Positions 37,741 through 64,000 of a DNA stretch of 64,000 nucleotides are shown piece after piece. The notes beneath the pieces are model-generated. The model was not told the DNA's origin and ran no database searches. It saw only the letters and a program-made list of their open reading frames with translations. The position numbers and the translations under genes were made by a program. Within the stretch, counting starts at the first letter, position 1. Each line of letters opens with the position of its first letter. The DNA is from Scilla litardierei (lineage: Eukaryota; Streptophyta; Magnoliopsida; Asparagales; Asparagaceae): contig CM061133.1 in the NCBI GenBank assembly GCA_030789695.1, positions 92,789,248 to 92,853,247 of the forward strand, written 5' to 3'.

Positions 37741-38113
37741 CCATGGGTGTGGAGCTTAGAAAGTGTCATGAGTATCCACTTGTGAAGTAGGAGATTTCCT
37801 ACGTAGATGAAGGTTTGTGTACATGTAAACATGGCTTCTCTTTTGGTTTCCACCCTTAGTGGGTTTCTGACGTGTGTTTATATTTCATATATTTGCGCAC
37901 GTTTTCCTCCGTGTTTTTCCGTTATTTACCGCCATCTTATATTCATTTTCTCGTGTTTTCTTGTTTTCTTTCACTTTTCCGTGTTTTTCGTATTTTGCAG
38001 GAGTTTACTGGCATATGGGACATAAAACGACGATATCATGAGTCCTCGGAGCAACAGGAGGAGTCACACGTGATCCAGGGGTCAAACGACGAATATCACA
38101 TCTTTCAACCCCT

Positions 38114-38485
38114 CACCCGACCGGTTGGTCATTTCCAACCGATCGGGTGATGCACGCGTGCACCACCTGGACACAAGTTGGAGCGGCCAAGAAGTCACCC
38201 GGTCGGTTCAGTGACCGGTTCAAACGCCCCAACTCTCTGGAATTCTGACGCTGAATGCCAACCGATTGGGTGACCTTCACCCGATCGGTTCACCTGTAGC
38301 CGATTCTCTGAAGCCAAGAAACGGAGAGATCAACCGACCGGTTCACCCGACGGCACGAAGATCCAACCGATCAGCTTCAACCCTCAACCGACCGTGCCGT
38401 GGTGACCGGGTGGAGTCCTATTCTGAGTCGTCGAAGAAACGCAGCAGGTCACCCGATCGGGTGACTTTTCACCCGATCGGGTGAT
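38114..38485. promoter_or_regulatory. CACCCGATCGGGTG palindrome array of Athila-1
   Basis: It includes a hairpin with 15-bp arms and one mismatch (38114-38149), a hairpin of AACCGATTGGGTGA and TCACCCGATCGGTT (about 38268-38305) and two perfect 16-bp palindromes TCACCCGATCGGGTGA (about 38448-38485). Single ACCGACCGGTT-like words lie between. Confidence 0.82.
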
Positions 38486-38936
38486 ATCGTATTCTATATC
38501 TAGGACCCCTAGGTTTTCCAGAAACGAGAGTTGTTATTTTTTGCTGTTTTTTCTCTCTTGACGGCTGTAATTTTTCAGATATTTGTAAGTCTTCCGATCT
38601 TTGTCAAACTTTAATATAGTGTTATTAGCATTGCTCGTATGGCTTTTTAATCCCCTGATCATGATTTTTACGGTCGATTTCTATTTAGATCGCTTTTTAC
38701 TAAATATGTGTGAGTAGTTCCCTAATCTGGGATTTTGGTGGAAACCCCTTCGTGGGCTCTTCCCGATGCGTCCATAGGACTAGGAAATCGATAGGGAATA
38801 GGAATCTAATGGTTACGCGGGGTGTTTTATTGTCATCGGTGGGAAAAAGACCTACTTTGACCGTTGGGCCAAGGGGGAATAAACTTGGCGGTTGACTCCC
38901 TAGTCATAGCTCTCGCTCTTAGCGTAGACGTCGAAT

Positions 38937-39041
38937 CCTAGCACGCGGGAGCGGCAGGATAAGGCGTTGGGAGTTATCGTTGCGAGCTTAGTGCTCCCAG
39001 AGTCGGTCAGTGTTAATGGACACGGGAGTGCCCACTGACCG
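38937..39041 (+). ncRNA. GGGA-capped hairpins in the Athila-1 leader
   Basis: Two elements: CGC-GGGA-GCG (38944-38953) flanked by CCT/AGG, and CAC-GGGA-GTG (39021-39030) inside a 9-bp stem CGGTCAGTG/CACTGACCG (39004-39012 and 39033-39041). GGGA is a GNRA tetraloop. They sit in the same part of the LTR as the GAGA hairpins of Athila-2. Putative cis-acting RNA structure, not an independent transcript. Confidence 0.55.
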
Positions 39042-39466
39042 AACCCAGGAAGTCCGGCGTATCATCCTGGGCACCGACCGGAATATCGGGCCCATGGGAC
39101 GCTGGTACCACTTTCAGAGGCAACGTCTCACCATTAGACCCTAATTCTGATCGTCATCCGACCCGTAGGCCGTGTCGGCGAGAATCGCACGATAGGGTGG
39201 AAACCAAAGTGCCGGGTTTTCCCTTTATATTGTTTATCCATTGCATTCCATTTACTGTGACAACCCATCATCCGATTCGGGCTAGCTCACCCATGGGGTG
39301 AACTTGATCCTGCTTGACACAAGCACATCCACGCCTCCCTGAGTTCGACCCCCAAGCCACACTACAACACCGTGCGCTTGCGGTTACAAATATTTAAATC
39401 TCACGCACCCAATCATATTATTGCACACATCAAACACGCACAAAAACAGGGGGGTGTCAAGCTTTA

Positions 39467-40430: not shown

Positions 40431-40728
40431 TGATCACTATGTATTTTACACCTTTTTTCTGCATGTTTGCATGCCATTTAGATCGCTCAAATCGTGTTTT
40501 TCAAGTTTATTCGACAATATTGCGATGCTTTTCACGATTTGTTGTTTTTGTCGTATTTCAGGAGATTTGGAGCGATTTGCAGTGATTCTGAGATACACCC
40601 ACTCCGGAGTGTCACCGACGACTCTCTTGAGGGGTATTTTTCGATTGGAGAGGAGTGGTAGAGGAAAGAACGTCGTAGGAGCGACGAGGAGGAAAAAACA
40701 TGAAGAATGGGCATTTTCAGCATGCCAC

Positions 40729-41100
40729 TCGGCCGAGTGAAGGAGTCACTCGGCCGAGCATAGACAGCCCGCTCGGCCGGCCAGATCGGACACGCAACAG
40801 AGCCAATATCAGCATGCACTCGGCCGAGCATCGCCATACCACTCGGCCGAGCACCGAGTCATCCCTCGCCCGAGTGGAGCCAAGACGACGGCAACCAAAA
40901 ACGTCCAACTCTCTGGAATCCATCAGTCAGCCCTAAAGACCGACTCGGCCGAGTGATGAAAGACCGTCCGCCCGAGTGAAGAACGCCCACCGACCGAGTG
41001 AAGAAAAGTCACTCGGCCGAGTGACTCCCGAGGAGACGACCCCCAAGACCCCCAACTCTCTGTAATCTATCAGGGTCTATCACTCGGCCGAGTGACATTT
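40729..41100. promoter_or_regulatory. CACTCGGCCGAGTG palindrome array in U3 of Athila-2
   Basis: About seven perfect CTCGGCCGAG palindromes and several variants (CTCGCCCGAG, CGACCGAG) lie 100-470 bp upstream of the TATA-like box. The 3' LTR copy is at about 59931-60300. Confidence 0.88.
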
Positions 41101-41200
41101 GTCACTCTGCCGCGTGAGCCGTGCTGCCTGTAGCGTAAACTGCGATTTTGAGGCTGCGTAGGGGCATTTTCGTCAGGATTTTTTGGGCGATTTTGGGGAG

Positions 41201-41207
41201 TATTTAA
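41201..41207 (+). promoter_or_regulatory. TATA-like box of the Athila-2 LTR
   Basis: TATTTAA, in GGGGAGTATTTAACCCC. The Athila-3 LTR has CTATTTAAGG at the same place (about 63247). A weaker match than a canonical TATA box. Confidence 0.55.
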
Positions 41208-41593
41208 CCCCAGTTTTTAACCTAGATTGGAGAGCTTTTTCAGAATTTTTTGCAGCCTTTTTAGATTAACTTTTTAGGAATTAGATTTAGCTTTTAGGGA
41301 GGAGAGAAAAGTGATAATTTGTTGGATGCTACCTTGTTCTTCATTGGTTTGTCTCTCTCTCCCTCAAAAACTCCATTTTATTGATTTATTGAATATAGCT
41401 ATGAATTCCATTCATTTTACTTGTGAATTTCTATTGAATTTGATGATGAATTGTGAGTAGTTTCATCGTCTTAGGGCGTAGGGATGAACCTTACGAACCC
41501 TATTTCTAATTTGTGATGAATTGGTGAAATTATTGCTAGAATTGATTAGGGTTAGTTTGGGATTGATTTAATACGAATAGCTAGGGATTCATA

Positions 41594-41935
41594 CCGATTG
41601 GGATTTGCAAGAGATTGGATCCCAACTCGATAGGAAGCCCTAGAAATTCAAATTGGGTTGAAATTGGATTTCTCCGGAATCGGTTTGCAAGAGATTGGAC
41701 CGAAACTAGGGTTTTCGATTGTAATTCTATACCAATACCCGTTTGCAAAAGATTGGACGGGTAGGAACTATCCCAACCTAGGTCGTAGCTCGAGTTTGCA
41801 CGAGAGTGGGCTCGAGATACGATTGAACGATGATGTTGTTCTTCACGCTAGTTTGCCTAGGTTAGGGTTTGCAAGAGATTGGGCCCTACCCTAGGTTTGC
41901 TATAGACCGGCAATAGCGCGAGAGCGTGAGCTTGG
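41594..41935 (+). ncRNA. Tandem GAGA-tetraloop hairpin array in the Athila-2 leader
   Basis: Five hairpins with an invariant 14-nt apical element. Outer arms: 41598-41604/41619-41625, 41680-41684/41699-41703, 41736-41742/41757-41763, 41789-41795/41810-41816, 41856-41868/41883-41895. Apical sequence TTGCAAGAGATTGG in three, TTGCAAAAGATTGG in the third, TTGCACGAGAGTGG in the fourth. It folds as CAA-GAGA-TTG, or CAC-GAGA-GTG in the fourth. A sixth, different member has CGC-GAGA-GCG at 41917-41926. The array lies downstream of the TATA-like box, so it should be in the leader RNA. Putative cis-acting RNA structure, not an independent transcript. Confidence 0.8.
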
Positions 41936-42261
41936 TTCTACATTTAGTTGCAACTAGTTCACCCGAATTTCAAGTCTAGCAATTGTGAAACCTACGAATC
42001 ACAATGATGAGATACGGCGAGTAGCGGGGATTCCCTACCCCTAGGCGTCTTTATTAATTTGTTATTTGTTTTATACGATTGAACGACTGTGATCGCATTA
42101 CTGCGAACGTTTCTCGACTTTTCTTATAGCCAGGTGATTGAAGAAGACATTGTTATTAGGCCTCCCTGTGTTCGATACCCGCTCGCCGCTACACCGTGCG
42201 CTTGCGGTAAGACTACAGTGTCGCCGCTCCGGGACGTGTATCCGGGGCGCGATCAAGTTTT

Positions 42262-42279
42262 TGGCGCCATTGCCGGGGA
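42262..42279 (+). promoter_or_regulatory. Primer binding site of Athila-2
   Basis: TGGCGCCATTGCCGGGGA, six bases after the LTR end. Confidence 0.9.
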
Positions 42280-42396
42280 GGCAATAGTGTTTGATTCTAC
42301 CTACCTAGCTATTTTTCTTTTTTGTTCTATTATTTCTATTTTTATTTTACCCTTCCGTTGTGCTAACTATTTCTTTGAAACTCTGTTTTCCCTTGC

Positions 42397-43953
42397 ATGT
42401 ACACAAGATCCTCGGCGAACCCCGAAGAGATACTATACGATCCGGAGATCGAGCGTACATTAAGGAGGATCGGAGCGGAGAGGAGACCCGTTACGGAAGG
42501 AAATTTTATGACCCATCCTGAGACACCCGAAGAATTGGCAGAGCGAATGGCGAGGATTATTTCCATAAGAGATAGGCTTCGGCCTAAGACTTCTTTTACG
42601 ACCTCGTCCATAGCCATGCCGGAGTTGGCGGTCGACAAAAAATTTAAGTTGAAGACCGGATTGGTGGTCCTTATGCAACAAGATCCTTTTCATGGGAACT
42701 CCCATGAAAATCCTCATTACCACATCCAGCTCTTCCTATCGAAGTGTGCCACCTTCCAAATGCCGGGCGTCTCCGTGGATGCTATCAGACTGCGCCTCTT
42801 CCCTTTCACACTCAAGGACAAGGCCTTATATTGGTTGAGGACGCAAGCTGAAGGAATCTTCACCACTTGGGATGAATTGGCGAGTGCCTTCGTCGACAAA
42901 TTTTACCCGCCCTCCAAGACGGTGAAGATAAGAAGTGCTCTCATGTCCTTCAAGCAAGGACCACAGGAGACTCTCTATGAAGCATGGGAGCGCTTCAAGG
43001 ACTTGCAACATCAATGCCCCCATCATAGCATTGAGGATTGGGAGCTTGTCCACAGTTTCTACAATGGACTCCAACCGGGCACGAAGCAGATTATTGATGC
43101 CACCGCAAATGGAGCCATTTTGTCGAAGACTCCCGATGAAGCTACGGCCTTGCTTGAGGAGATGGCCTCGAACAACCAACAGTGGGGCGATGAGCGAGGA
43201 CACTCTTCGTCATCCTTGAAGCTGTCTAGCATTTATGAGGCCAAGGCCGTCGCGGAGCTTGCCAACAAATTTGATTCTCTCCACAAGGTAGTGGAGAGAT
43301 TGGAGAAATTCATTACGGAGCCTCAAGGAGCCCCTTCTACATCCACGTCGACAAATCATATGAACGATTGGCAAAACCAATCCCAAGCCATGTATGTAGG
43401 AGGAGAGCAAGGAGAAGGAGCTTTGGAGCAAATTCAATACGTCGCGGGGAATTCTGGATATTGGGCCAATCCGGTCGCTAGAAACCATCTGGGTTTCTCA
43501 TATGCTAATAATGATGGTGCATTGAACCCCCCGCAAAAACAACCTCCTCAAGCTCGAGCTCCACCACCACAACCAAATTATCCACCAAGGGGGCCACCGC
43601 AACAAAACTTCCCACCGAGGCAACAAGTGGGACCTTATAGGCCACCCGGGTACAATCAAGGGTGGAGAAATCCCAACCCTCCGCAAGCTCAACCATGTCC
43701 GGATTTTGAAGCTAAGGTGGAGGAGTTTATGGCGGAACAAAGAAAGATCAACGCCACGTTGAAGGCGGGACAAGATTCTCTCGCCACCGTCGTCGCTCAA
43801 ATTTGGGAGCAACTTGCTTTGCTCAATAAAAACAATCAACAATTGCCGGCTCAACCCGAGCCGAATCCACGGGGCAACACCGGCCATATCAATGCGGTCA
43901 TTGCGGTTACAACAAGAGGAAGGAAGGATACCACCCCCCATGACTCAAATTAA
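42397..43953 (+). pseudogene. Athila-2 gag
   Basis: The ATG at 42397 starts MYTRSSANPEEILYDPEIER. The frame is open for 518 codons. The Retrotrans_gag (PF03732) region is at about 42700-43080 (QLFLSKCATFQMPGV, LRLFPFTLKDKALYWL, AFVDKFYPPSKTVKIRS, ETLYEAWERFKDLQHQCPHH, SFYNGL). It is followed by a predicted helical part (ELANKFDSLHKVVERLEKF) and a long Pro/Gln-rich linker (about 43530-43660). No zinc knuckle is visible, as usual in Athila. Near 43900 the frame should pass into protease, but a small insertion around NAVIAVTTRG shifts it and it stops at 43953. Gag itself is nearly complete and could be made. Confidence 0.88.
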
Positions 43954-45274: not shown

Positions 45275-48155
45275 TGTCACGCCCCGCTTCCCAAAAATAT
45301 GGAGGCGAAGCGTGAGAAGGTCCGCTCAGACTTGAAGCTACAAAGCTGCAAGTCCGATAAGCGTCAATCAAATTTAAAACTGCAGGTCCTTGCAACGCGA
45401 GCGAAACAAGATAATAATAATGAAATGAGACAAAAGAATAATCTCAGAATATCCATAAAATGAGTTTCAACATCACAGAAAAAGCCACCAGGCTAAAAGA
45501 AAAAGAGACTAAAGGCCCAAACATGGCCAACAAAGTGCAAAGTACAAAACAACGGTGCTACGCACCAACAACTAACAAAAGGCCTAAAGCAAAATAAAGC
45601 TCAACAAAGACTCAAGGAATGGTCACCGGTGTCCACCAAAATCCTCCTGGACAATCATGGACCCAGACTCAGCGTCAGCAACACCTCACGTACGCAGCAA
45701 CGGTCTCGGGCTCAGGGTCTAACATGTGACACCCAAAAGAGCAAGGGGCACATGTCAGCAAGTCTACAAGAGACTTGTGCAAGGAAACTGAAAGTAGGTA
45801 AAACAACCTAGCAGTTCTAGCATGAATGCAATGACATGGCAGTTTAAAGTATGAGTGCAACAAGTAAAGTAAAGTAAAGTAAAGTACGAGCATGGCATTT
45901 AAACATGGCATGGATGACAAGTATTGCATGAATCATTCACAAGACAAGTACAAGACAAGAAAAGTAAGCACCTCGTGCACAGAGATTCCGTCTTTTGGCT
46001 AGAGGGCGGATCAGGCCACTCCTAAGCTCAAGTAACCGTTTATCCATACCCATCCACGTGTATCGGGCATTGGTTTCTAGCCAACACATGAGGCCCGCTT
46101 CTGGACCACGAGCCAGGAAGTGTTTAAACAAGTATGGCATAGGGGTGCACCTAGCCGGACAAGTAGTACGAGTACAAGTATTGTAGCGTGTGCTACGAAT
46201 GCGACATTCAATGCATGGATGGCATGACATGGCAAGTAGTAAAGCGTACAAGTAAGGAAAGTAACGTGACCGTTTAGTATGCATGAACAACAAGTTTTAA
46301 GTGTTGGATCTAGCTTCGTTGTCAAGCTAGATCAATTAGGTGACGGATCTAGTTTCGTTGTCAAACTAGATCAAGTAGGCGTCTAGCCAGCTATCATTTC
46401 ACTGGCTAGTCTCTTTTACGCTAAAAACAAGGAAGTGGCCTAAAAACATGGCCCTACACAAGAGTTGGCATGTTTCACTTGCCTGCAAGCACGACGTCTG
46501 AGCACACCGTCCAATGAGTCCAAAAATCACAATTATCCTACGTGCACAAGTCCATATTATTAATCTTGATTAGTGAATTTAAAACATTTAAAATACTTTA
46601 AAAATACTAATTTTAGTCTTGATTAGCATGCAATTGGGTTGGGGGTCCTAGGGGTGCAAAACGTTACCTCAACACGACGCGAAAGCTACACCGGCATCGG
46701 GTAGCGACGCCGGGGGTTGGAATAAAAGATCGCGCTCCAAGTCCAGATTCCAATTAGATTCCGCGCTGGAAATTTCAGAGCAATCGACCGGGCGACGATT
46801 CCAGATTCCAAGGCTCGCACGTGCGACGACGGGCTACGACGTGCGACGACGTCGTACGCGACGAATCCTCAAAGAGCAAGCACCTAGGTGGGGCCCACAG
46901 TAGTCCTAGGGGCCTTTGGGGGACCCACAATAACTCTAGAGAACTTGGGGGGCCCACGGAGGCAAGCGGTGCGACGGATGCGGGGTTGCGACGAGTGGCT
47001 CTCGGTCGTACACAGCCAATGCGGGGAGATCTCTCGGTCGTGCGCTGAGAATTGCGGAGCTGCGACGATTTGGGGTGCAGCAGTGCGGGGAGCGCTTGGT
47101 TCTCTCGGTCGGAGCGGGGGAGGCCATCGGTCGTGCGGGTTGGATGCGGGGAGCGCAGCGCTGCAACGTTGCAACGGTTGCAACGTTGCGGAGATGCAGC
47201 GATGCGGGCGAGAGCATCGGTCGGGCATGGAGCGGAGCAGGTGAACGGGAGCGGGCGCTGAGCGGGGCTTGGTGCGGAGCGGGGATGCGGAGAAGTGGGG
47301 CGGGTCTCTCGGTCTGAACGAGGGACCCTCTCGGTCGGTGCCGCCTTGGTGCGGGGTTGTGATGCAGCGGCTGCAGCGGGTACGGACAGAGCGGCTGAGC
47401 GGGCTTGGGCGTCGATCAGGGCGGGAGATTTGGGCTGTTTCCGTCGGTCGGTGCGGGGGGGGTTCGTCGCAACGTTGCGACGAATCGTCGCAACGTCTAA
47501 TTTGAGTTTTGGAAGAGGCTAGGGTTAATTTCTTGCGAAAATAGGTCTTCCTAGGGGTTGTTTATATAGTGTAGATGGGTTGACTTGGTCTAGGGCTAAA
47601 TCTAATAGGATTAGAAGTTTAAAAGTATTTAAAATTTAAATCTAAACTTCTCCAACTTATCCAAGGATTTGACTTGGTCCAAATGAGCTGGAAATTGGCT
47701 CAAAAATTCTTTAAAACGTTTTAAACTCAAATAACTTTTATTTGGCCGAAAATAATTTATAAATTAATTATTAAAAATAATATAAAACTTGTTAAAAATA
47801 TTAAAGTGGTCAAATAAACTCCAAAAATTATAAAATAAATATCGGGGTGATCGTGATGACGAATGTGAGCTAACTAAGAAGACGGATCTCAAGTTCGACG
47901 TCAGACGACGAAACCAAAAATGGAAACGTCTCCCGTCAAAAGTGAAAATCGCCACGTCTCGTCGAATAAGTTTAAATTGTGGGAAAACGACTCGAGAAAC
48001 GTCGTTCCAATTTAGTGCCACTATTTAATACTCTCAGAGACGTTCACAACGGCATATCACACGAAAGTGTTCACAAACAAACAAAGTCTAAGACGAACAC
48101 GTGCACGGTCAAAAGCACGTGCACGAACAACGTACAACGAAAAGTGGTCGTTACA
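45275..48155 (-). repeat. 3' LTR of the LARD (minus orientation)
   Basis: TGTCACGCC...GTCGTTACA on the plus strand. On the minus strand a TATA box (CTATATAAAC, about 47564-47573) precedes a GC-rich leader (46800-47520) with many TCGGTCG words and palindromes (CGTCGCAACGTTGCGACG near 47466; GCAACGTTGCAACGGTTGCA near 47163). An AAGT-rich tandem (GTAAA repeats) lies at 45860-45885. Small frames over 46800-47520 are composition artefacts. Confidence 0.92.
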
Positions 48156-48193
48156 TCCTCCCCACCTTAGAATAAAGTCCGTCCTCGGACTTT
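48156..48193 (-). promoter_or_regulatory. Polypurine tract and hairpin of the LARD
   Basis: On the minus strand AAGGTGGGGAGGA ends at 48156, directly before the LTR. Upstream AAAGTCCG-AGGA-CGGACTTT (48193-48174) is a perfect 8-bp hairpin. Confidence 0.85.
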
Positions 48194-49950
48194 CTAATAT
48201 AGCTAGTCACTCTAGTAACTACCCCAATCAAGTCATATAATATTTCAACCAGGTATAGTCATTACAAGTGATTATATATGCGCTAGGTAGTCAAACATTA
48301 ATACTACCAACACGTATATACATTTATATATATTCACGTACATTATACACTTATACCTATTATAGTCAGTCAAATTCATACATGTATTTCAATCAAATAT
48401 ATATAAACATACATCCCTTATATACTACTATTCACAAAACAATAGTTCAGATACTCATATAAGGATAGTCTCACACTTAGCCAATACAATCATTGCTCTA
48501 CCTATATGTAGCTACCTATGCACAAACATCAAGGGTATACTACCCTCTAATATTTCCTAGTATACATCCAATACTAAGCATATCCACATAAGCAGTCACA
48601 CCATACCATTTCAAGTCAAATTTTTACTCTATCTAATATATATTCACTACTACCATATTTCACTCATTATATAGTCATTCAATGCATGCAAATAGTTCAC
48701 CACATATTCTCATCGCATACGGTCCTATAACTGTATTTACGACACACCACATATATCATAGTCATCAAAACCTATAACTAAGCACATATTTACCCGTGCA
48801 TGGTGCACACCCATACACGCTAACATTTCATTTACGCATACCAATCATACCATTACATTACTAGTACATCTGCACACCTAGTTTTAGCTAGTACACATAC
48901 GTTCACACGAGCAAGTCCTTAGTAATTAGCTATACCACAAAACCAACACCTATAACTATATACTGGTGTAGCGACCCACAATCATGTGCGTAACACAACC
49001 AGGCACAAACACTCCTATCACTATACATACATCAAACATCGCTATATTCAAACTTCAGGCATACATTCACTATACTTAGAGTATACCCACTCAAGCTTGA
49101 GTGAGACTCAATACATATATCAGAATATTCTATATACGTAACACGGCATTCATACATATACCAATACCACTCCATTATATATATATATGCATCTACCAAT
49201 ACAACCATATACATTCCATAAATCAATCACACTTAATATTTAGTCAGATAACACCCACATAGTTCAAACTAATTATATACCATAATAATAACATTACCGA
49301 CATCAGCACCCACATATTTATAATACCCTCTCTAGTACAAACATTCACCGTATAGTCACACACATGTAGTACATATATTCATACCATAGCCTACTACCTA
49401 TAATTAGTATACTAACACATTCACACATACATAATTAAGATGTGCAATAGTCGTGTATACCTCACGGTATGCACGCATGCAACATCCCGAAAAGCAAGCA
49501 ATACCAATCAAAATTATACTCCTACTTCCATAGGTATATCACCTATATACTCAGGCAACAAAACATAACTACTTACGTCTAAGCATAATATATACCTACA
49601 TACGAGCACATACACATACGTACTAATATATAGGTCACTCAATAGGCCTACTTACTTATCTATATGCACACCTATTATCATCACACCTAGCATATACATA
49701 GCTTTACCAATTATTTTATTTCAACCATTATAAGTATCTCTTACTACATATGCAACTTAGATATTTCAACGCTAACTCTTATATACACAGGCATCTCTAG
49801 TATAGTATAGCTATCCACACAACAATCTATAACTACTAACACACAACAACTTCATACTATCACGAATAACTCCGAGTATATATATATATATCACACATTA
49901 GGCAAGCATTAATATACTATGGGGGGTGTACTCATTCAAGCTCACGTACG
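48194..49950 (-). other. G-poor, C-rich half of the LARD interior
   Basis: About 1.7 kb of the plus strand with very little G (1-3 per 60 bases in lines I counted) and C several times as frequent, mixed with TATA-type alternation (e.g. CATATATACC). No frame over about 65 codons. Nothing resembles pol. Confidence 0.75.
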
Positions 49951-51593
49951 TGCACTACAACACCTCACAAAGGCCCAAGGGTCTACTAACAACTAAGAGT
50001 TGACACAGACATTGATGGGCACTAAAGTCTAAGCAATAAGGGGGGTCGAGAGCGTGGCGAGGGAAGGGTCGATAAGCACAAGTTCAGATAGGACGAATAC
50101 TAGGGGACAGCTTGGTTAGACGAAACATTGACTCAATGGTGATGTTTAGGTTGAGGGAAAAGGGAGATGTAGTGATGCTTATATAGGAGGGGGAAAAGAA
50201 AATAGGGTAAATAGCATAAGCTAAAGTGCGCAAAATTGAAAACTGTTGTACTTCAAAAAAAATTGGAATTCCTCATCTGTATAAAATATTTGAAGATCGA
50301 TAAAGCGAGTTGAAATAAGTTTGAGTCGAATATTCATAATAAGAGAAAATGTTTTATTGGTTTATATAAAATCAATGTAAAAGGAAGTAAAATCATTTAC
50401 ACGAATATTAAGGACGAGGTTTTAGAAATCTTATACGTTAGTAATTTAATACAATGTTGTCAAAAGTTTTTGAAAGTCAAAGAATGAAATCAAGTAACGG
50501 AAGAATTTAAACTCATGTTAAATGCTTCAAAACTTTCGGCTATGGAAAATTTTAAAATGATCAATTTGAAACTGCTTTTAGAGAACCAGGGTTTGCCAAA
50601 AATGAAAAAAACTGATTTACGCAAGGTTCTTAATATACGAGCTCAACAAGTCTGGCACGGATATAAAAATAATTGAAATTCAATTTGGTTTAGAAATTTT
50701 TCTAAAAGCGTGTATGGTGAGCGGAAAGAAAATAATAGTAATTTAGCATAAGAATTACCAAGATCGAATAGCAAATCTTTAAAATCAAATCAGGGAGGGA
50801 AAAATTATAAATCGCATTGGGCAAAGCAAAAGTACGGTCCAGAATAAAATTGATATATGAAGGGGCAACGCATTTGCATAAGTACGAAAAACATAGGCTG
50901 GGAAAATACTATAAGCTAGTATTCAAAAATTCCGACAAACGTTTTAAAATTTTAAATCAATGAGGGAGGATGAAGTATAAGTATATTAAAATTTTAAACA
51001 AAGTTAAACTTAGTGGAAGAGAAGATTGAAAAATTCTTTCAGAAGGTTCAAGTTTTGCAATGGAGGTGTTTGAAAATTGACGACGATCGTCATGAGGCGA
51101 TCTCGTGAATCGAGGCAAGGAAATTTGTCGGATGATCAAAACATGCATACGCCTAGGGTATGAATCAGGAGAATCTACGGGGAACTCCTACGGTCGACCA
51201 ACTAAAGATTAAGAACTAAGCGCTAAGACTTTCTAAGGAGCTAGACGGTAATGAAATGCGTTCAGCTTGGTCTGAAATCGATGGACCCAAACGAACGACG
51301 GAAGGAAATTCTAGGAGTCTAATAGGGTCAGGGTTAGACAAGAACCCCTAAGGTCACTCCTACGACGATTAAATCAATTGCTGACAGGGAGTCTAACTAA
51401 CAATCAGAGGCCTCTAACTAGCAATCACAGGCGTCTAATTAAGCGTTCTTACCACCTAGTGTCGTAAGAAAACGACTAGACTCAGGGCTTATGACTCGGA
51501 TGTTGCAATTTATTTAATGGACATTCTGTTAATAGCGTTGTTCCGCTAATTCGCAATTGCAAGACGCAACCTGCATGGGCCACCAACAAAACC
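49951..51593 (-). other. Remaining LARD interior with primer-side region
   Basis: No coding motif. Three 21-bp units (TCTAACTAACAATCAGAGGCC, first 20 given as type) repeat at about 51391-51440. The primer site, expected on the minus strand just after the LTR end (from 51593 down), reads GGTTTTGTTGGTGGCCCATG and does not match the iMet site, so the primer tRNA is not identified. Confidence 0.6.
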
Positions 51594-54473
51594 TGTCACG
51601 CCCCGCTTCCCAAAAATATGGAGGCGAAGCGTGAGAAGGTCCGCTCAGACTTGAAGCTACAAAGCTGCAAGTCCGATAAGCGTCAATCAAATTTAAAACT
51701 GCAGGTCCTTGCAACGCGAGCGAAACAAGATAATAATAATGAAATGAGACAAAAGAATAATCTCAGAATATCCATAAAATGAGTTTCAACATCACAGAAA
51801 AAGCCACCAGGCTAAAAGAAAAAGAGACTAAAGGCCCAAACATGGCCAACAAAGTGCAAAGTACAAAACAACGGTGCTACGCACCAACAACTAACAAAAG
51901 GCCTAAAGCAAAATAAAGCTCAACAAAGACTCAAGGAATGGTCACCGGTGTCCACCAAAATCCTCCTGGACAATCATGGACTCAGACTCAGCGTCAGCAA
52001 CACCTCACGTACGCAGCAACGGTCTCGGGCTCAGGGTCTAACATGTGACACCCAAAAGAGCAAGGGGCACATGTCAGCAAGTCTACAAGAGACTTGTGCA
52101 AGGAAACTGAAAGTAGGTAAAACAACCTAGCAGTTCTAGCATGAATGCAATGACATGGCAGTTTAAAGTATGAGTGCAACAAGTAAAGTAAAGTAAAGTA
52201 AAGTACGAGCATGGCATTTAAACATGGCATGGATGACAAGTATTGCATGAATCATTCACAAGACAAGTACAAGACAAGAAAAGTAAGCACCTCGTGCACA
52301 GAGATTCCGTCTTTTGGCTAGAGGGCGGATCAGGCCACTCCTAAGCTCAAGTAACCGTTTATCCATACCCATCCACGTGTATCGGGCATTGGTTTCTAGC
52401 CAACACATGAGGCCCGCTTCTGGACCACGAGCCAGGAAGTGTTTAAACAAGTATGGCATAGGGGTGCACCTAGCCGGACAAGTAGTACGAGTACAAGTAT
52501 TGTAGCGTGTGCTACGAATGCGACATTCAATGCATGGATGGCATGACATGGCAAGTAGTAAAGCGTACAAGTAAGGAAAGTAACGTGACAGTTTAGTATG
52601 CATGAACAACAAGTTTTAAGGGTTGGATCTAGCTTCGTTGTCAAGCTAGATCAATTAGGTGACGGATCTATTTTCGTTGTCAAACTAGATCAAGTAGGCG
52701 TCTAGCCAGCTATCATTTCACTGGCTAGTCTCTTTTACGCTAAAAACAAGGAAGTGGCCTAAAAACATGGCCCTACACAAGAGTTGGCAAGTTTCACTTG
52801 CCTGCAAGCACGACGTCTGAGCACACCGTCCAATGAGTCCAAAAATCACAATTATCCTACGTGCACAAGTCCATATTATTAATCTTGATTAGTGAATTTA
52901 AAACATTTAAAATACTTTAAAAATACTAATTTTAGTCTTGATTAGCATGCAATTGGGTTGGGGGTCCTAGGGGTGCAAAACGTTACCTCAACACGACGCG
53001 AAAGCTACACCGGCATCGGGTAGCGACGCCGGGGGTTGGAATAAAAGATCGCGCTCCAAGTCCAGATTCCAATTAGATTCCTCGCTGGAAATTTCAGAGC
53101 AATCGACCGGGCGACGATTCCAGATTCCAAGGCTCGCACGTGCGACGACGGGCTACGACGTGCGACGACGTCGTACGCGACGAATCCTTAAAGAGCAAGC
53201 ACCTAGGTGGGGCCCACAGTAGTCCTAGGGGCCTTTGGGGGACCCACAATAACTCTAGAGAACTTGGGGGGCCCACGGAGGCAAGCGGTGCGACGGATGC
53301 GGGGTTGCGACGAGTGGCTCTCGGTCGTACACAGCCAATGCGGGGAGATCTCTCGGTCGTGCGCTGAGAATTGCGGAGCTGCGACGATTTGGGGTGCAGC
53401 AGTGCGGGGAGCGCTTGGTTCTCTCGGTCGGAGCGGGGGAGGCCATCGGTCGTGCGGGTTGGATGCGGGGAGCGCAGCGCTGCAACGTTGCAACGGTTGC
53501 AACGTTGCGGAGATGCAGCGATGCGGGTGAGAGCATCGGTCGGGCATGGAGCGGAGCGGGTGAACGGGAGCGGGCACTGAGCGGGGCTTGGTGCGGAGCG
53601 GGGATGCGGAGAAGTGGGGCGGGTCTCTCGGTCTGACCGAGGGACCCTCTCGGTCGGTGCCGCCTTGGTGCGGGGTTGTGATGCAGCGGCTGCAGCGGGT
53701 GCGGACAGAGCGGCTGAGCGGGCTTGGGCGTCGGTCTGGGCGGGAGATTTGGGCTGTTTCCGTCGGTCGGTGCGGGGGGGTTCGTCGCAACGTTGCGACG
53801 AATCGTCGCAACGTCCAATTTGAGTTTTGGAAGAGGCTAGGGTTAATTTCTTGCGAAAATAGGTCTTCCTAGGGGTTGTTTATATAGTGTAGATGGGTTG
53901 ACTTGGTCTAGGGCTAAATCTAATAGGATTAGAAGTTTAAAAATATTTAAAATTTAAATCTAAACTTCTCCAACTTATCCAAGGATTTTACTTGGTCCAA
54001 ATGAGCTGGAAATTGGCTCAAAAATTCTTTAAAACGTTTTAAACTCAAATAACTTTTATTTGGCCGAAAATAATTTATAAATTAATTATTAAAAATAATA
54101 TAAAACTTGTTAAAAATATTAAAGTGGTCAAAAAAACTCCAAAAATTATAAAATAAATATCAGGGTGATCGTGATGACGAATGTGAGCTAACTAAGAAGA
54201 CGGATCTCAATTTCGACGTCAGACGACGAAACCAAAAATGGAAACGTCTCCCGTCAAAAGTGAAAATCGCCACGTCTCGTCGAATGAGTTTAAATTGTGG
54301 GAAAACGACTCGAGAAACGTCGTTCCAATTTAGTGCCACTATTTAATACTCTCAGAGACGTTCACAACGGCATATCACACGAAAGTGTTCACAAACAAAC
54401 AAAGTCTAAGACGAACACGTGCACGGTCAAAAGCACGTGCACGAACAACGTACAACGAAAAGTGGTCGTTACA
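51594..54473 (-). repeat. 5' LTR of the LARD (minus orientation)
   Basis: 2880 bp, almost identical to 45275-48155. Differences include C/T near 51981, a G-run shortened by one near 53777 and scattered transitions. Confidence 0.93.
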
Positions 54474-55588: not shown

Positions 55589-57612
55589 ATGCCGCCCCGT
55601 ACACGGCCACGCACTCGGGGAACTTCCGCCAAGCGGAAGCAGACGGATGAGCCCGGCCCCTCCCACGCTAGGGAGGACTCCCCTCCACCTTCACCACCTC
55701 ACCCCCACACGGCCATTACCAGCCGACCCCATCCACCCGCAACCACTTCCAGCCGATCACGTTCACGCACAGCCACCACCGGCTCCCGTTGTCTGGCCGC
55801 TGGGGATTACATTCAAAGACGACGCACAACTCGTCCGATTTGAGCGTATCGCCCAGCGCCCGATAGTACCCTCCAGGTTCGCCCATTTAGCTGACCTAGA
55901 CCGCCTGGGGGTACTTGAGGGGATGCTCATGTTGTACGACAACGTGGGTTGGCGAGATTTTCTTTCTGTGTCGGCGGACACCTACGTCCGTCCGACACTC
56001 GAGGTACTCAGCTCGATCGCCCGGACCACTGAGGGATGTTCCTTTAGACTTATGGATCGAGAGTGTCAGATCACTCTCGATATGCTTAGAGCATTCTTTC
56101 AGTGGCCCGCAGTCCCCGTGCCCGACTGAGCCTACGCCCCCACACACATCCCCCCCATCTTTCGATTCACACGCCTTTTGGGCCAGGATCACGGGTTTAC
56201 CTCAGGCCTTTGACCCTAGTAGGGCCAAGGCCTCGGCCATAGTCCACCCCTGCCTCCGCATAGCACAGTGCCTTATGGCGACCACTTTTCTAGCAAGGTA
56301 CGAGCCTGGGACGATGTCTACGCCTGAGCTCTATATGCTCTACGCGATGACTCGCCCCAGAGTTCTAGATAGGGATGGTGTTACGATGGTCCCCGCCGTT
56401 GAGATTGACGTCGCTAGCTGGTTTTTGGACCGCATCATCGTATCGGTGGGCGCTCGCTCCCTGATATGTTGTGGCAGCCTGATCACCCTGCTAGCCCTGA
56501 TGACCGGCGAGGACCGTCCGGCCGACCTGCTTCGACCTTCGGGCCCCATTTCACTTTCGATAGACGTCATGGCCCGGATGAAGATGCTTCGTCTGCACGG
56601 ACATCGGCACTGGGTATGGTTACACTGTCCCTTTGGTGCTGACTACATGATCCTTCCGAGCCCCGCTCGGACACACATAGGACCAGCACACGGGGACTGG
56701 CTTCCGGCGATGGATCTCCTGATCCCCGCCGCCTACGTGCTCGAGGCCGAGGAGGCTAAGCAGGCACACCCTGCACCTATTGACCCTGTTATCCCTCAGC
56801 CTGAGCCTGCACTTTCTGCCGCTCCCGACACCTCTGTCCACACTTCTGCCGGTGTCGGGAGTACACCTGCTGAGTCGTCCTCCACTGCCACCACGTCTAC
56901 CACCACCCCCACCACTGATGTGCCCCTGTCGGTTGAGCCTCTCACCTCTCTGCTGCCCGAGCGTCCACCCACCATACTTGAGAGCGGCGAGTCTTCCTTT
57001 GCTTCCGTCGTGGAGACCCTATCCACTTTGATCTCCGCTGGGGTTTCACCTTTTGGACCCCACACTTCCTCCCCAGCGGTCGACCCTTCTGTCTCCACCG
57101 TAGCTGTCCTATCTGAGAGCGTCGTGACGTCTGTTCCCATGTCTGTGTCACTGACCTCTCTTGCCGCCTCGTCACCGATTGTGTCTTCCACTCCCACTGC
57201 TGCTGCTTCCACCTCACACCAGCCTGCGTCCCAGCCTCGCACTGAGGCTGGGCATCCACTAGTGAGCACAGCCCCCATTCCACCCATGCCTGTTGTCCCG
57301 ATCACCTACACTGCCCGTGTCAGACAGCCCCGACCTGCTCAGCCTAGACCTGTCCGTCCCTCCACTCCACCACCCCCTGACGCCTTAGTTCAGAGCGTTC
57401 GCGCTCTTTAGGGGGCGATGAGTGGACTCATGGGAGATTTTAGGGCTCTGTCTTCCACAGTCACCGCCATGCAGCACCGCCTCGAGCTACTTCCCGGCAT
57501 TCACTTTTGCTTGACCCAGATTCTCGAGCGACTGCCACGACCACCACCCACCCAGCAGACTGTTCCACGACCACCACCCCCACCACCACCCACCCAGCAG
57601 ACTGTTACCTAG
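55589..57612 (+). pseudogene. ATHILA-family ORF (PF03078-like) with two frameshifts and a stop
   Basis: The ATG at 55589 starts MPPRTRPRTRG, a basic part with a possible nuclear signal (AKRKQ) and a Pro-rich stretch. Near 55770 the reading moves to the frame with ITFKDDAQLVRFERI and LEGMLMLYDNVGWRDFL; near 56110 it moves again to the frame with FWARITGL, SRAKASAIVHPCLRIAQCLM and ELYMLYAM. This order resembles the Arabidopsis ATHILA ORF-1 family. A long Ser/Thr/Pro-rich tail follows. TAG at 57409-57411 (CAG-type position) is followed in frame by MSGLMGDFRALSSTVTAMQHR and PTQQTV repeats to TAG 57610. Function unknown; some authors call the Athila 3' ORF env-like, but I see no signal peptide or membrane segment. 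Confidence 0.78.
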
Positions 57613-59633: not shown

Positions 59634-61456
59634 TGATCACTCTGTATTTTACACCTTTTTTCTGCATGTTTGCATGCCATTTAGATCGCTCAAATCGTGT
59701 TTTTCAAGTTTATTCGACAATATTACGATGCTTTTCACGATTTGTTGTTTTTGTCGTATTTCAGGAGATTTGGAGTGATTTGGAGTGATTCTGAGATGCA
59801 CCCACTCCGGAGTGTCACCGACGACTCTCTTGAGGGGTATTTTGCGATTGGAGAGGAGTGGAAGAGGAAAGAACGTCGTAGGAGCGACGAGGAGGCAAAA
59901 ACATGAAGAATGGGCATTTTCAGCATGCCACTCGGCCGAGTGAAGGAGTCACTCGGCCGAGCATAGACATCCCGCTCGGCCGGCCAGATCGGACACGCAA
60001 CAGAGCCAATATCAGCGTGCACTCGGCCGAGCATCGCCATACCACTCGGCCGAGCACCGAGTCATCCCTCACCCGAGTGGAGCCAAGACGACGGCAACCA
60101 AAAACGTCCAACTCTCTGGAATCCGTCAGTCAGGCCAAAAGACCGACTCGGCCGAGTGACGAAAGACCGTCCGCCCGAGTGAAGAATGACCACCGACCGA
60201 GTGAAGAAAAGTCACTCGGCCGAGTGACTCCCGAGGAGATGACCCCCAAGACCCCCAACTCTCTGGAATCTGTCAGGGTCTATCACTCGGCCGAGTGACA
60301 TTTGTCACTCGGCCGCGTGAGCCGCGCTGCCTGTAGCGAACTGTGATTTTGAGGCTGCGCATGGGCATTTTCGTCAGGATTTTTTGGGCGATTTTGGGGG
60401 TATTTAACCCCAGTTTTTAACCTAGTTTGGAGAGCTTTTTCAGAATTTTTTGCAGCCTTTTTAGATTAACTTTTTAGGAATTAGATTTAGCTTTTAGGGA
60501 GGAGAGAAAAGTGATAATTTTTTGGATGCTACCTTGTTCTTCATTGGTTTGTCTCTCTCTCCCTCAAAAACTCCATTTTTATTGATTTATTGAATATAGC
60601 TATGAATTCCATTCATTTTACTTGTGAATTTCTATTGAATTTGATGATGAATTGTGAGTAGTTTCATCGTCTTAGGGCGTAGTGATGAACCCTACGAACC
60701 ATATTTCTAATTTGTGATGAATTGGTGAAATTATTGCTAGAATTGATTAGGGTTAGTTTGGGATTGATTTAATACGAATAGCTAGGGATTCATACTGATT
60801 GGGATTTGCAAGAGATTGGATCCCAACTCGATAGGAAGCCCTAGAAATTTGAATTGGGTTGTAATTGGATTTCTCCGGAATCGGTTTGCAAGAGATTGGA
60901 CCGAAACTAGGGTTTTCGATTGTAATTCTATACCAATACCCATTTGCAAGAGATTGGACGGGTAGGAACTATCCCAACCTAGGTCGTAGCTCAAGTTTGT
61001 ACGAGAGTGGGCTCGAGATACGATTGAACGATGATGTTGTTCTTCACGCTAGTTTGCCTAGGTTAGGGTTTGCAAGAGATTGGGCCCTACCCTAGGTTTG
61101 CTATAGACCGGCAATAGCGCGGGAGCGTGAGCTTGGTTCTACATTTAGTTGCAACTAGTTCACTCGAATTTCAAGTCTAGCAATTGTGAAACCTACGAAT
61201 CACAATGATGAGATACGGCGAGTAGCGGGGATTCCCTACCCCTAGGCGTCTTTATTAATTTGTTATTTATTTTATACGATAGAATGACTGTGACCGCATT
61301 ACTGTGAACGTTTCTCGACTTTTCTTATAGCCAGGTGATTGAAGAAGACACTGTTATTAGGCCTCCCTGTGTTCGATACCCGCTCACCGCTACACCGTGT
61401 GCTTGCGGTAAGACTACAGTGTCATCGCTCCGGGACGTGTATCCGGGGCGCGATCA
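59634..61456 (+). repeat. 3' LTR of Athila-2
   Basis: 1823 bp, colinear with 40431-42255. The third hairpin stem has TACCCAT against ACGGGTA (one broken pair) and the fourth has CTCAAGT with TTGTACGAGAGTGG; the others keep pairing. Confidence 0.92.
60794..61130 (+). ncRNA. GAGA hairpin array in the Athila-2 3' LTR
   Basis: Same five hairpins and the CGC-GAGA-GCG member as in the 5' LTR, with a few mutations. Putative cis-acting RNA structure. Confidence 0.75.
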
Positions 61457-61461
61457 ATCTA
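61457..61461. other. Right target site duplication of Athila-2 (ATCTA)
   Basis: ATCTA against ATCCA at 40426-40430. Confidence 0.78.
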
Positions 61462-62263: not shown

Positions 62264-62569
62264 TGATCGGTACATATTTTACACCTTTTTTCTGCATATT
62301 TGCATGCCATTTCGGTTGCTCATATTGCATTTTTCACGATTATTCGATGATATTGTGCTACTTTTCACTATTTCTTGTTTTTGTCGGATTTCAGGAAATA
62401 TGAGCAATTGGGAGCAAAAAATGAGCTTAAAGGACTTGCACACGTAATGGAGCATCGCTCATGGACTTATTGAGGACCTATTAGCGATAGAAGACGAGTG
62501 GAAGAAGAAAGAACGTCGTAGGAGCGACGAGGAAGCGAAATGATGAAGATTGGGCATTTTCAGCATGCC

Positions 62570-63155
62570 ACTCAGCCGAGTGAAGGAGTCACTCGGCCGA
62601 GCAAAGAAGCCCACTCGGCCGGCCAGATCGGACACGCAATTACTTGAAGATTAGTGTGCACTCGGCCGATTGACGACATACCACTCGGCCGAGTATGGAG
62701 ACACCACTCGCCCGAGTGGCACACGAACGACGGCATCCAAAAAGACCAGACTTATTGTAATCCGTCAGTCGACTACGAGCTCTGACTCGGCCGAGTACCA
62801 AAATCCCCTCTGCCGAGTGACATTTGCCGCTCGGCCGAGTGATGCCGAGGACACGCAGCGCCCAGATTTTCAGACAGCCTCCCACTCTTTTGAAATCTGC
62901 TATCATTCCAGATGTTAAAGTATTTTTTCTCATATTCTTTATGGATAGTAGACTTCGTGACGGTTCCAACGCCGCCAAGAACGCGTCAGTCGGAGGTCGG
63001 ATGAAATCTGGGGAATTTCTGCAAGTCGATGCTGCAGTGCTGGAATTCGCATGTCAGTGTCCAGTTTTTGCCAGTTTTTGACAGAGTGCTGTTCTCTGGA
63101 AATTTTGCAGGAATTCCCACTTGGCCGAGTGAGCTTTCCACTCGGCCGAGTCGCG
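62570..63155. promoter_or_regulatory. CTCGGCCGAG array in U3 of Athila-3
   Basis: About six perfect CTCGGCCGAG and several altered copies (CTCAGCCGAG, CTCGCCCGAG, CTTGGCCGAG), upstream of the TATA-like box. Confidence 0.82.
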
Positions 63156-63619
63156 ACTGGCACAGAACTTAAGTTAGGCGCAGAACTTATTTTGGGCGCG
63201 GGTTTCAGAGGGTTTTTAGGGGCTGTTTGCAAGGGTTTTTTGGGGGCTATTTAAGGGGTTTGTAGCCATCATTAGGGGAGGTTCCCATGATGTTTTCTTA
63301 GGATTATTTTAGAGGTTAGGCCATGCCCTATGCCCCCTCTTGGATCAAAAAGCTTGTATTTGGATTGGAATTCTTCATCAAAGCTAAGTATTTCTATTCT
63401 TATTATTTGAATCTTTGATTTGCTATCTTTTTATATGCAAGCAATGGTTTTTATCGATTCTCATATCGGTATTGCTATGCTTGAGTAGATTTGTTGTTCT
63501 AGGGCTTGGGGATGAACCCTATGGATCTAATTTCAGATTTGTGATGAATGAATTTCTAAATTGCTAGGATTGCTAGGAGGTTAGGTTGTGATCGATTTAT
63601 TACGGATAGCTAGGGATTT

Positions 63620-63935
63620 CCATCGATTGGGGTTTGCAAGAGATTGGATTCTAATCGATGGGAAGGCCTAGATATTCGATTTAGGTTTATAATCGAGATT
63701 CTCTAGACTTGGTTTCCAAGAGATTAGACCAAAGCTAGGATTTTTATTATAAATCTATACCCATATTCGTTTGCAAGAGATTGGATGAATATGAACTATC
63801 ATAACCTAGAACGTAACTCGAGTTTGCACGAGAGGGGGCTCGAGGGGCGATTGAACGATGATGTTGATCCTAATGCTAGTGGCTTAGGCTAGGGTTTGCA
63901 AGAGATTGGGCCCTATCCTAGGGTTGCTATAGACC
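63620..63935 (+). ncRNA. GAGA hairpin array in the Athila-3 leader
   Basis: Outer arms: 63620-63633/63648-63661 (14 bp, three G-T wobbles, no mismatch), 63709-63713/63728-63732, 63762-63770/63785-63793 (9 bp), 63817-63823/63838-63844, 63883-63895/63910-63922. Apical sequences are TTGCAAGAGATTGG in three, TTCCAAGAGATTAG in the second and TTGCACGAGAGGGG in the fourth. Putative cis-acting RNA structure. Confidence 0.78.
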
Positions 63936-64000
63936 GGCAATAGCGCGAGAGCGTGAGCTTGGTTCTATATTCAGTTACGACTAGTTCACCTCAACGCAAG

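What the first reader, a model, noticed from the sequence alone, without database searches (positions are those of the whole stretch)
41594..41935. Five tandem hairpins with an invariant GAGA-capped tip and different outer stems
Seen: in the Athila-2 5' LTR the sequence TTGCAAGAGATTGG (or a close variant) occurs five times in about 290 bp, each time flanked at the same register by complementary arms. The arms differ between units: TTGGGAT/ATCCCAA, TCGGT/ACCGA, TACCCGT/ACGGGTA, CTCGAGT/GCTCGAG and a 13-bp arm with one mismatch. The 14-nt tip can itself fold as CAA-GAGA-TTG. In unit 4 both sides of this mini-stem change together to CAC-GAGA-GTG. A related CGC-GAGA-GCG follows. Known: GNRA tetraloops are stable RNA motifs used in tertiary contacts and protein binding. 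Inference: a leader RNA module for packaging, dimerisation or translation, loosely like the tandem tetraloop hairpins in retroviral packaging signals. I know of no description of it in Athila elements.
Basis: partly seen in the sequence, partly recalled or inferred. Interest (0 to 1): 0.92.

Follow-up and report, generated by a model that had tools for sequence, protein, structure and literature searches.

The report
Five-hairpin RNA array in Athila LTRs
A very abundant plant retrotransposon carries, in the leader of its RNA, five tandem hairpins that share one nearly identical GAGA-capped tip on different stems; evolution has kept the stems paired in the RNA, which suggests a repeated docking site for a protein, perhaps the element's own coat protein.

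Summary
Five units sit at 41595-41895 and recur in both other Athila LTRs of the window. The window's genome (3.68 Gb) is held: the exact tip occurs 167,774 times (reversed control 5); 94 of 95 arrays examined have all five units. Best model of a unit: outer stem, U.G pair, UG bulge, 3-bp stem, GAGA loop. Across 94 arrays 95.4% of modelled cells pair; compensatory double changes number 11 (null mean 2.3, maximum 8 in 1000 simulations). Internal-branch changes keep pairing 77:25, terminal ones 94:139. In stems G.U beats A.C 42:12; outside stems the same mutation classes are 116:115, so selection acts on the sense RNA. Forms of the inner pair, A-U, C-G and C.U, count 167,774, 32,129 and 247. No single pair passes an all-pairs test (0 of 34,341); support is per helix. 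A second Athila family (gag 42% identical) has two similar GGGA hairpins. Function is inferred: most likely a multivalent Gag-binding packaging or dimerisation element (about 0.45), with translation or export as rivals. I saw no earlier description in ten literature searches (listings and some passages).

The parts
40431..42255 (+). LTR1, 5' LTR of Athila element A (TGATC...GATCA)
   Evidence: 40431-42256 is 97.0% identical to 59634-61457; PBS-like sequence follows
41201..41207 (+). TATA-like TATTTAA, about 400 nt upstream of tip 1
   Evidence: sequence; exact GTATTTAA at -440..-330 in 41 of 74 copies
41453..41462 (+). GTGAGTAGTT block, shared with the element B leader (38710 on); donor-like, function untested
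   Evidence: best match between the two leaders, 11 nt, E 0.20; GTGAGTAG in 41 of 74 copies at -151..-156
41595..41629 (+). unit 1 hairpin, tip 41605-41618
   Evidence: fold; pair counts in 74 copies
41673..41710 (+). unit 2 hairpin, tip 41685-41698
   Evidence: fold; pair 4 TA/CG compensation
41736..41763 (+). unit 3 hairpin, tip 41743-41756 (AAGA loop in this copy; minimum-energy tip here is an open loop)
   Evidence: pairs 4 and 5 TA/CG compensation
41782..41823 (+). unit 4 hairpin, tip 41796-41809 (CAC-GAGA-GTG; an unbulged six-base-loop tip is the minimum-energy fold here)
   Evidence: fold; pairs 6 and 7 and inner pair 3 compensated
41856..41895 (+). unit 5 hairpin, tip 41869-41882
   Evidence: fold; inner pair 3 AT/CG switches in both directions
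41917..41926 (+). CGC-GAGA-GCG after the array; conserved sequence, stem not supported
42262..42279 (+). primer-binding site, tRNA-Asp type (type recalled; PMC1142308, passages, shows tRNA-Asp pairing for the related Diaspora and Calypso)
   Evidence: sequence
42397..43953 (+). gag of element A
   Evidence: PF03732 E=1.1e-20
60786..61146 (+). same array in LTR2, 3' LTR of element A (tips 60806, 60886, 60944, 60997, 61070)
63613..63975 (+). array in LTR3, a diverged copy (tips 63634, 63714, 63771, 63824, 63896)
38936..38959 (+). element B leader, hairpin Ba: purine bulge + CGC-GGGA-GCG
   Evidence: folds, scans
39004..39041 (+). element B leader, hairpin Bb: A bulge + CAC-GGGA-GTG in a long stem
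   Evidence: folds, scan

Best explanation
The array is a module of five sense-strand RNA hairpins in the R/U5 leader of an Athila retrotransposon. Each hairpin presents the same bulged, GAGA-capped tip on a replaceable stem. Shown: presence, near-universal conservation in the copies sampled, selection for pairing while the element was active, and sense-strand action. Inferred: the tip is read by one protein or RNA partner, five times over. The likeliest partner is the element's own Gag, so that multivalent binding marks or dimerises the genomic RNA for packaging into virus-like particles. That the array is a selected RNA structure is about 0.93 likely; the Gag/packaging function about 0.45. 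That the array lies inside the transcript is inferred from the TATA-like box.
For: All five units are in 94 of 95 arrays examined, at nearly fixed spacing. Canonical pairing is 6182 of 6479 cells; compensatory doubles are 11 against null mean 2.31, maximum 8 of 1000; with 74 arrays 13 against 2.08, maximum 9 of 1000. Slid registers pair in 21-45% of cells with 0-1 doubles. Keep:break is 77:25 on internal and 94:139 on terminal branches, p=3e-9. Internal WC>GU:WC>AC is 42:12, against 116:115 for the same mutation classes in non-stem columns, p=2e-4. Tip columns change 0.16 times per column on internal branches, non-stem non-tip columns 1.34. Inner pair 3: A-U 167,774, C-G 32,129, C.U 247 in the genome. 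Sense fold z=-4.7. Fixed tips on changing stems, repeated in a retroelement leader, is what multivalent protein docking predicts (inference). Family B has two comparable hairpins with its own tip.
Against: No binding, packaging, expression or probing data. No single base pair is significant in the all-pairs test (0 of 34,341; best model pair E=2.65). In one search, 1 of 1000 simulations reaches the outer-stem covariation score and 15 of 1000 the inner-stem score, and the number of pair-breaking changes equals the null (121 against 121.3). 5 of 15 single units of the window do not have the bulged tip (one of them has it in part) as minimum-energy fold. Copies come from a few subfamilies of one genome and were found by their tips. 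The 5' end and the R/U5 boundary of the RNA are unmapped. The antisense strand is also unusually stable (z=-4.9), so folding energy alone does not give the strand.
Confidence: 0.5

Rival explanations
1. The hairpins steer translation of a leader of about 1.2 kb, for example by ribosome shunting or internal entry, or by holding back translation so that RNA is kept for packaging.
For: About 1.2 kb from the TATA-like box to the gag ATG, with many upstream ATGs: 2.13 per 100 nt before the array, 1.17 in it, 0.74 after.
Against: ATGs are not excluded from the array. Five identical tips are not a known feature of shunt or IRES structures (recalled). No reporter data.
Confidence: 0.2
2. The tips bind a host protein for nuclear export or stability of unspliced genomic RNA, like repeated-loop export elements of some retroviruses (recalled).
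For: Repeated identical protein-sized sites; a donor-like GTGAGT upstream of the array would place it in an intron-like segment, present only in unspliced RNA. Predicted donors in the LTR are reported for the related Diaspora family (PMC1142308, passages).
Against: GTGAGTAG is exact in only 41 of 74 copies. No transcript data; the same paper says introns upstream of gag had not been reported.
Confidence: 0.14
3. The palindromes act as DNA, as transcription factor sites or cruciforms, not as RNA.
For: The arms are palindromic and the tip is a near-fixed 14-mer.
Against: Internal-branch stem changes favour G.U over A.C 42:12 with no strand bias outside stems, 116:115. Stem sequence changes while pairing is kept.
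Confidence: 0.05
4. A decoy or substrate for small-RNA machinery, or a by-product of short duplications.
For: The tip is repeated; LTRs are siRNA sources (recalled).
Against: The arms differ between units and changed in compensated fashion at 10 distinct pairs (11 events). Stems of about 7-14 bp are short for Dicer (recalled).
Confidence: 0.06

Closest known systems
Tandem GACG-tetraloop hairpins of gammaretroviral packaging signals (MLV type)
   Same: Leader hairpins with a shared tetraloop in a reverse-transcribing element; PMC516450 (passages) says GACG tetraloops are involved in RNA packaging in alpha- and gammaretroviruses and may help dimerisation.
   Different: GAGA (GNRA class), not GACG; five units, not two (two, and their tandem order, are recalled); a UG bulge and a U.G pair below the tip; inside the LTR upstream of the PBS; no functional data.
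Packaging and dimerisation signals of the plant Ty1/copia element BARE
   Same: A cis-acting RNA signal in a plant LTR retrotransposon; PMC3735527 (passages) refers to conserved dimerisation and packaging signals.
   Different: Another superfamily; no tandem identical-tip hairpins in the passages seen.
Bulged coat-protein hairpins such as the MS2 operator (recalled)
   Same: Few base pairs, 5'-side bulge and fixed tetraloop, on a stem whose sequence matters little.
   Different: Unrelated element and protein; different loop; analogy only.

Membership tests
Athila lineage (Ty3/gypsy) element | ATHILA ORF and gag domains | tested here: met
   PF03078 20.9 bits (cut-off 20.2) in 55915-57408 and PF03732 E=1.1e-20 in 42397-43950
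Athila lineage (Ty3/gypsy) element | tRNA-Asp type primer-binding site after the LTR | tested here: inconclusive
   TGGCGCCATTGCCGGGGA at 42262-42279; tRNA assignment recalled, no tRNA was compared
Athila lineage (Ty3/gypsy) element | Reverse transcriptase phylogeny | not tested
   element A is interrupted by a nested element; no RT tree was made
Retroviral-type packaging signal | Conserved structured RNA in the leader | tested here: met
   structure and sense strand; that it lies in the transcript is inferred from the TATA-like box
Retroviral-type packaging signal | Specific binding by Gag | not testable with these tools
   needs binding assay
Retroviral-type packaging signal | Needed for enrichment of the RNA in particles | not testable with these tools
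   needs particle RNA data
GACG-tetraloop double hairpin | GACG loop | tested here: not met
   GAGA in 358 of 370 tips, no GACG among the loops listed
Any Rfam family | Match above gathering score | tested here: not met
   41200-42300: one match up to E=5, a CRISPR-repeat family at 15.9 bits against 38, E=1.5

The most novel reading that the evidence does not exclude
Athila retrotransposons carry family-specific arrays of bulged GNRA hairpins that form a Gag-RNA recognition code: one family reads five UG-bulge/GAGA tips, another reads purine-bulge/GGGA tips. This would be a multivalent genome-packaging signal of plant Ty3/gypsy elements and could let families that share a cell keep their RNAs apart.
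Probability: 0.27. Interest if true: 0.86.

Novelty: new variant of a known kind. Interest (0 to 1): 0.73.

Why it matters
How plant Ty3/gypsy elements pick their own RNA for replication is, to my knowledge, largely open, although such elements make up much of many plant genomes. Here is a compact, repeated and evolutionarily constrained RNA motif with tens of thousands of natural copies in one genome, which makes the question directly testable with one short RNA and one protein. If it is a Gag signal, it would be a plant counterpart to the tetraloop packaging signals of animal retroviruses.

Tried and rejected
Searches outside the genome: no exact match for two tips in IMG/VR or for tip plus tip variant in GTDB contigs; PBS-like 20-mer none in IMG/VR; gag, as a single protein that reaches close relatives only, none in IMG/VR. 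Sequence strings in papers: 0 papers. An all-pairs covariation test in the manner of R-scape (my own code, not R-scape itself) gave no pair at E<0.05 with 35 arrays (best pair E=1.13) or 94; I then relied on helix- and event-level tests. Unit 6 (CGC-GAGA-GCG) rejected as a supported stem. Kissing by palindromic TTGCAA rejected as a requirement, since TTGCAC tips are common. An unbulged alternative tip (minimum-energy fold of unit 4 in LTR1) is disfavoured because it does not explain the joint A-U/C-G switches of positions 6 and 11. Leader comparison of families A and B: nothing beyond an 11-nt block at E 0.20. The A.G and G.U single-mutant counts and the count of the family B tip were asked for and never answered, so only one of the two mismatched intermediates was counted.

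Choices that affect counts: 92 fetched arrays plus 3 of the window make 95; L061 (truncated array) was dropped from structure counts, leaving 94. A unit counts as present if a 14-mer within 4 mismatches of either tip form lies within 15 bases of its expected place. L001-L008 (loci of three arrays that were fetched again) were left out. In one search seven positions were left out of the core pairs as internal loops, poor pairs or an alignment gap (unit 1 pair 14, unit 2 pair 7, unit 3 pair 8, unit 4 pairs 8 and 9, unit 5 pairs 7 and 12) after looking at the counts, which lists them all; the model leaves out the same positions. This favours the structure for percent pairing. The U.G position is's core but not. 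Ancestral states are Fitch parsimony with ties broken by a fixed order, on a FastTree tree from the same alignment. The criterion for family B was set after seeing B. Ascertainment: 32 arrays come from the first places on contig C1 with the exact tip, 40 from places on C1 with the CAC tip, 20 from places on C1-C8 with a C.U tip (those 20 are excluded from the 370-tip counts), 3 from the window.

Full report
What is there. The five tips start at 41605, 41685, 41743, 41796 and 41869. They lie in LTR1 (40431-42255) of an Athila element whose 3' LTR is at 59634-61457, 97.0% identical. A third LTR starts at 62264, is 80.8% identical to LTR1 over the stretch with the array, and runs off the window. 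All three LTRs hold the five units. The element is Athila by PF03078 (20.9 bits, cut-off 20.2) and has a Retrotrans_gag domain.

Fold of a unit. The model is an outer stem, a U.G pair, a two-base UG bulge on the 5' side, a three-pair stem CAA/UUG (or CAC/GUG), and a GAGA loop. It is the minimum-energy fold of 10 of the 15 single units of the window; LTR2 unit 3 has the inner stem but a broken outer one, LTR1 unit 3 (AAGA) and LTR3 unit 2 have an open loop, and LTR1 unit 4 and LTR3 unit 4 prefer another tip. The array as a whole is unusually stable (z=-4.7), but so is the antisense strand (z=-4.9), as expected from palindromes. In the whole-array fold of LTR1 unit 2 and its neighbourhood take another pairing as minimum energy while the centroid keeps the outer hairpin.

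Chance. Uninterrupted pairing at the fixed register is 7, 5, 7, 7, 6 in LTR1 and 14, 5, 9, 7, 6 in LTR3; multiplied Markov-null probabilities are about 5e-13 and 9e-16. In the first 35 arrays arms pair with their own partner and less well with those of other units of the same copy, for example 6.86 against 3.31 of 7 for unit 4; swapping partners between copies of the same unit lowers pairing only a little (6.86 to 6.36 in unit 4; 5.94 to 5.91 in unit 5), since most copies are close relatives.

Copies. The genome is held as G000, 3.68 Gb; the exact tip occurs 84,400 + 83,374 times against 5 for the reversed control. I fetched 72 stretches around tips on contig C1 and 20 more on C1-C8, and added the three window LTRs: 95 arrays. 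All five units were found in 94; L061 is truncated. Spacing is nearly fixed: 80, then 57-58, 53 and 71-73 in most copies. Pairwise identity in the first 35 arrays averages 83.5%, minimum 72.2%. A conservation profile over 74 copies in 40-nt bins shows a block from about 41455 to 42050 with major-letter fractions 0.76-0.93, against 0.51-0.67 upstream and 0.61-0.67 in the next 120 nt downstream; the last two bins, at the alignment's end, are 0.78 and 0.38.

Selection on pairing. With 74 arrays, outer pairs are canonical in 94.8% of cells; simulations that keep tree, column rates and change types give 82.2% (maximum 89.9% of 1000). Inner pairs: 98.7% against 89.7% (maximum 97.7%). Compensatory doubles are 13 against a mean of 2.08 (maximum 9). 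The two-sided covariation score of the outer stems is reached by 1 of 1000 simulations, that of the inner stems by 15. Sliding one side by 1-3 columns leaves 21-45% pairing and 0-1 doubles. The number of pair-breaking changes is not below the null (121 against 121.3). Most breaks lie on terminal branches: split by branch, internal keep:break is 74:22 and terminal 67:92; with 94 arrays 77:25 and 94:139, p=3e-9, and 11 doubles against 2.31 (maximum 8 of 1000). The plain reading is that pairing was kept while the element multiplied and decayed after insertion.

Which strand. On internal branches Watson-Crick pairs go to G.U 42 times and to A.C 12 times. The same mutation classes in non-stem columns run 116:115, so mutation bias does not explain it (Fisher p=2e-4). 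On terminal branches the ratio is 83:60 (p=0.065). G.U pairs exist only in the sense RNA; in DNA or antisense RNA the A.C class would be as good or better. This is the main argument against a DNA-level palindrome.

The tip. Tip columns change 0.16 times per column on internal branches, stems 1.08, others 1.34. In 370 tips the loop is GAGA in 358, the bulge UG in 362, and inner pair 3 is A-U 276, C-G 86, U.G 5, G.U 2, A.C 1. Genome-wide the two paired forms count 167,774 and 32,129, while the C.U intermediate counts 247; the A.G intermediate could not be counted. Of the 20 arrays fetched for a C.U tip, 19 carry it in one unit and L097 in two, and each of the five units is hit at least once, as decay would give. 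Pair 3 switched in units 4 and 5, in unit 5 in both directions; short gene conversion between tips could also do this and is not excluded. The switch speaks for the bulged tip: in the unbulged alternative position 11 would pair with position 4, which does not change with it.

Result against. The all-pairs covariation test gave no pair at E<0.05 among 34,341; the best model pair was second in rank (E=2.65); the 27 model pairs that vary on both sides rank higher as a group than the rest (p=8e-4). The tree is shallow with a few deep clades, so single pairs have little power. A multi-species alignment is needed.

A second family. Element B (LTR about 37.9-39.46 kb by eye; interrupted by element A in its gag) has a gag 42% identical to that of A. 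Its leader holds two tandem hairpins with a purine bulge and CRC-GGGA-GYG tips. Of 13 sequences (the window copy and 12 fetched), 12 have CGC-GGGA-GCG exactly in Ba (L103 has an extra G) and 12 have the Bb tip (not found in L108). One copy, L109, carries a paired G-C to A-U change in the Bb stem, and L112 has one half of it. Shuffled leaders reach two such hairpins 1 time in 2000, by a criterion set after the fact. The 12 copies were picked from the 40 best matches of 2,459 first-look candidates (mean identity 92.7%), so covariation could not be tested.

What it does. The pattern, a fixed tip on stems that change as long as they pair, repeated five times, is that of a multivalent recognition site (inference). 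In a retroelement leader the first candidate is Gag and the process genome selection, alone or with dimerisation. GACG tetraloops of alpha- and gammaretroviruses are the nearest analogue (PMC516450, passages). For plants, conserved dimerisation and packaging signals are mentioned for BARE (PMC3735527, passages); a 2025 review of plant LTR elements (PMC12786077, passages) has no occurrence of hairpin, stem-loop, dimeri- or Athila. Translation control and export remain open.

Literature. In ten searches (two searches asked about GACG tetraloops and about Athila in Silene) I saw no description of this array. I saw the listed rows only, capped per search, and passages of four papers. The library holds open-licence papers only.

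Limits. One genome, a few subfamilies, no transcript or protein data, unnamed species. The report claims a selected RNA structure with high confidence and a packaging function with moderate confidence.

Noticed in passing
38690-39460: Element B, another repeated Athila-type family (2,459 first-look candidates), has two tandem GGGA-capped, purine-bulged hairpins in its leader.
   Followed up: partly
40431-61457: Element A sits in the gag of element B; the flanks ATCCA/ATCTA look like a five-base target duplication with one change. A further B leader match lies on the same strand about 15 kb past the window end and may be B's 3' LTR.
   Followed up: partly
45275-54473: Two 2.88-kb direct repeats, 99.2% identical, inside element A: probably a young nested LTR element.
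   Followed up: no
40710-41110, 59930-60320, 62560-62850: Many copies of an ACTCGGCCGAGTGA-like palindrome in the U3 part of the Athila LTRs, and a similar run of CACCCGATCGGGTGA-like words in element B at 38100-38490. Different words, same palindromic style; function unknown.
   Followed up: no
41900-41932: Strongly conserved stretch right after unit 5, ending in the CGC-GAGA-GCG, without a supported stem.
   Followed up: partly
647-1117: Repeat with overlapping direct and inverted self-matches.
   Followed up: no
G000: Contigs of 358 Mb (C4, with the window) and 825 Mb (C13), others whose length was shown 146-333 Mb, recall a dioecious plant with large sex chromosomes such as Silene; recalled, not tested.
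   Followed up: no
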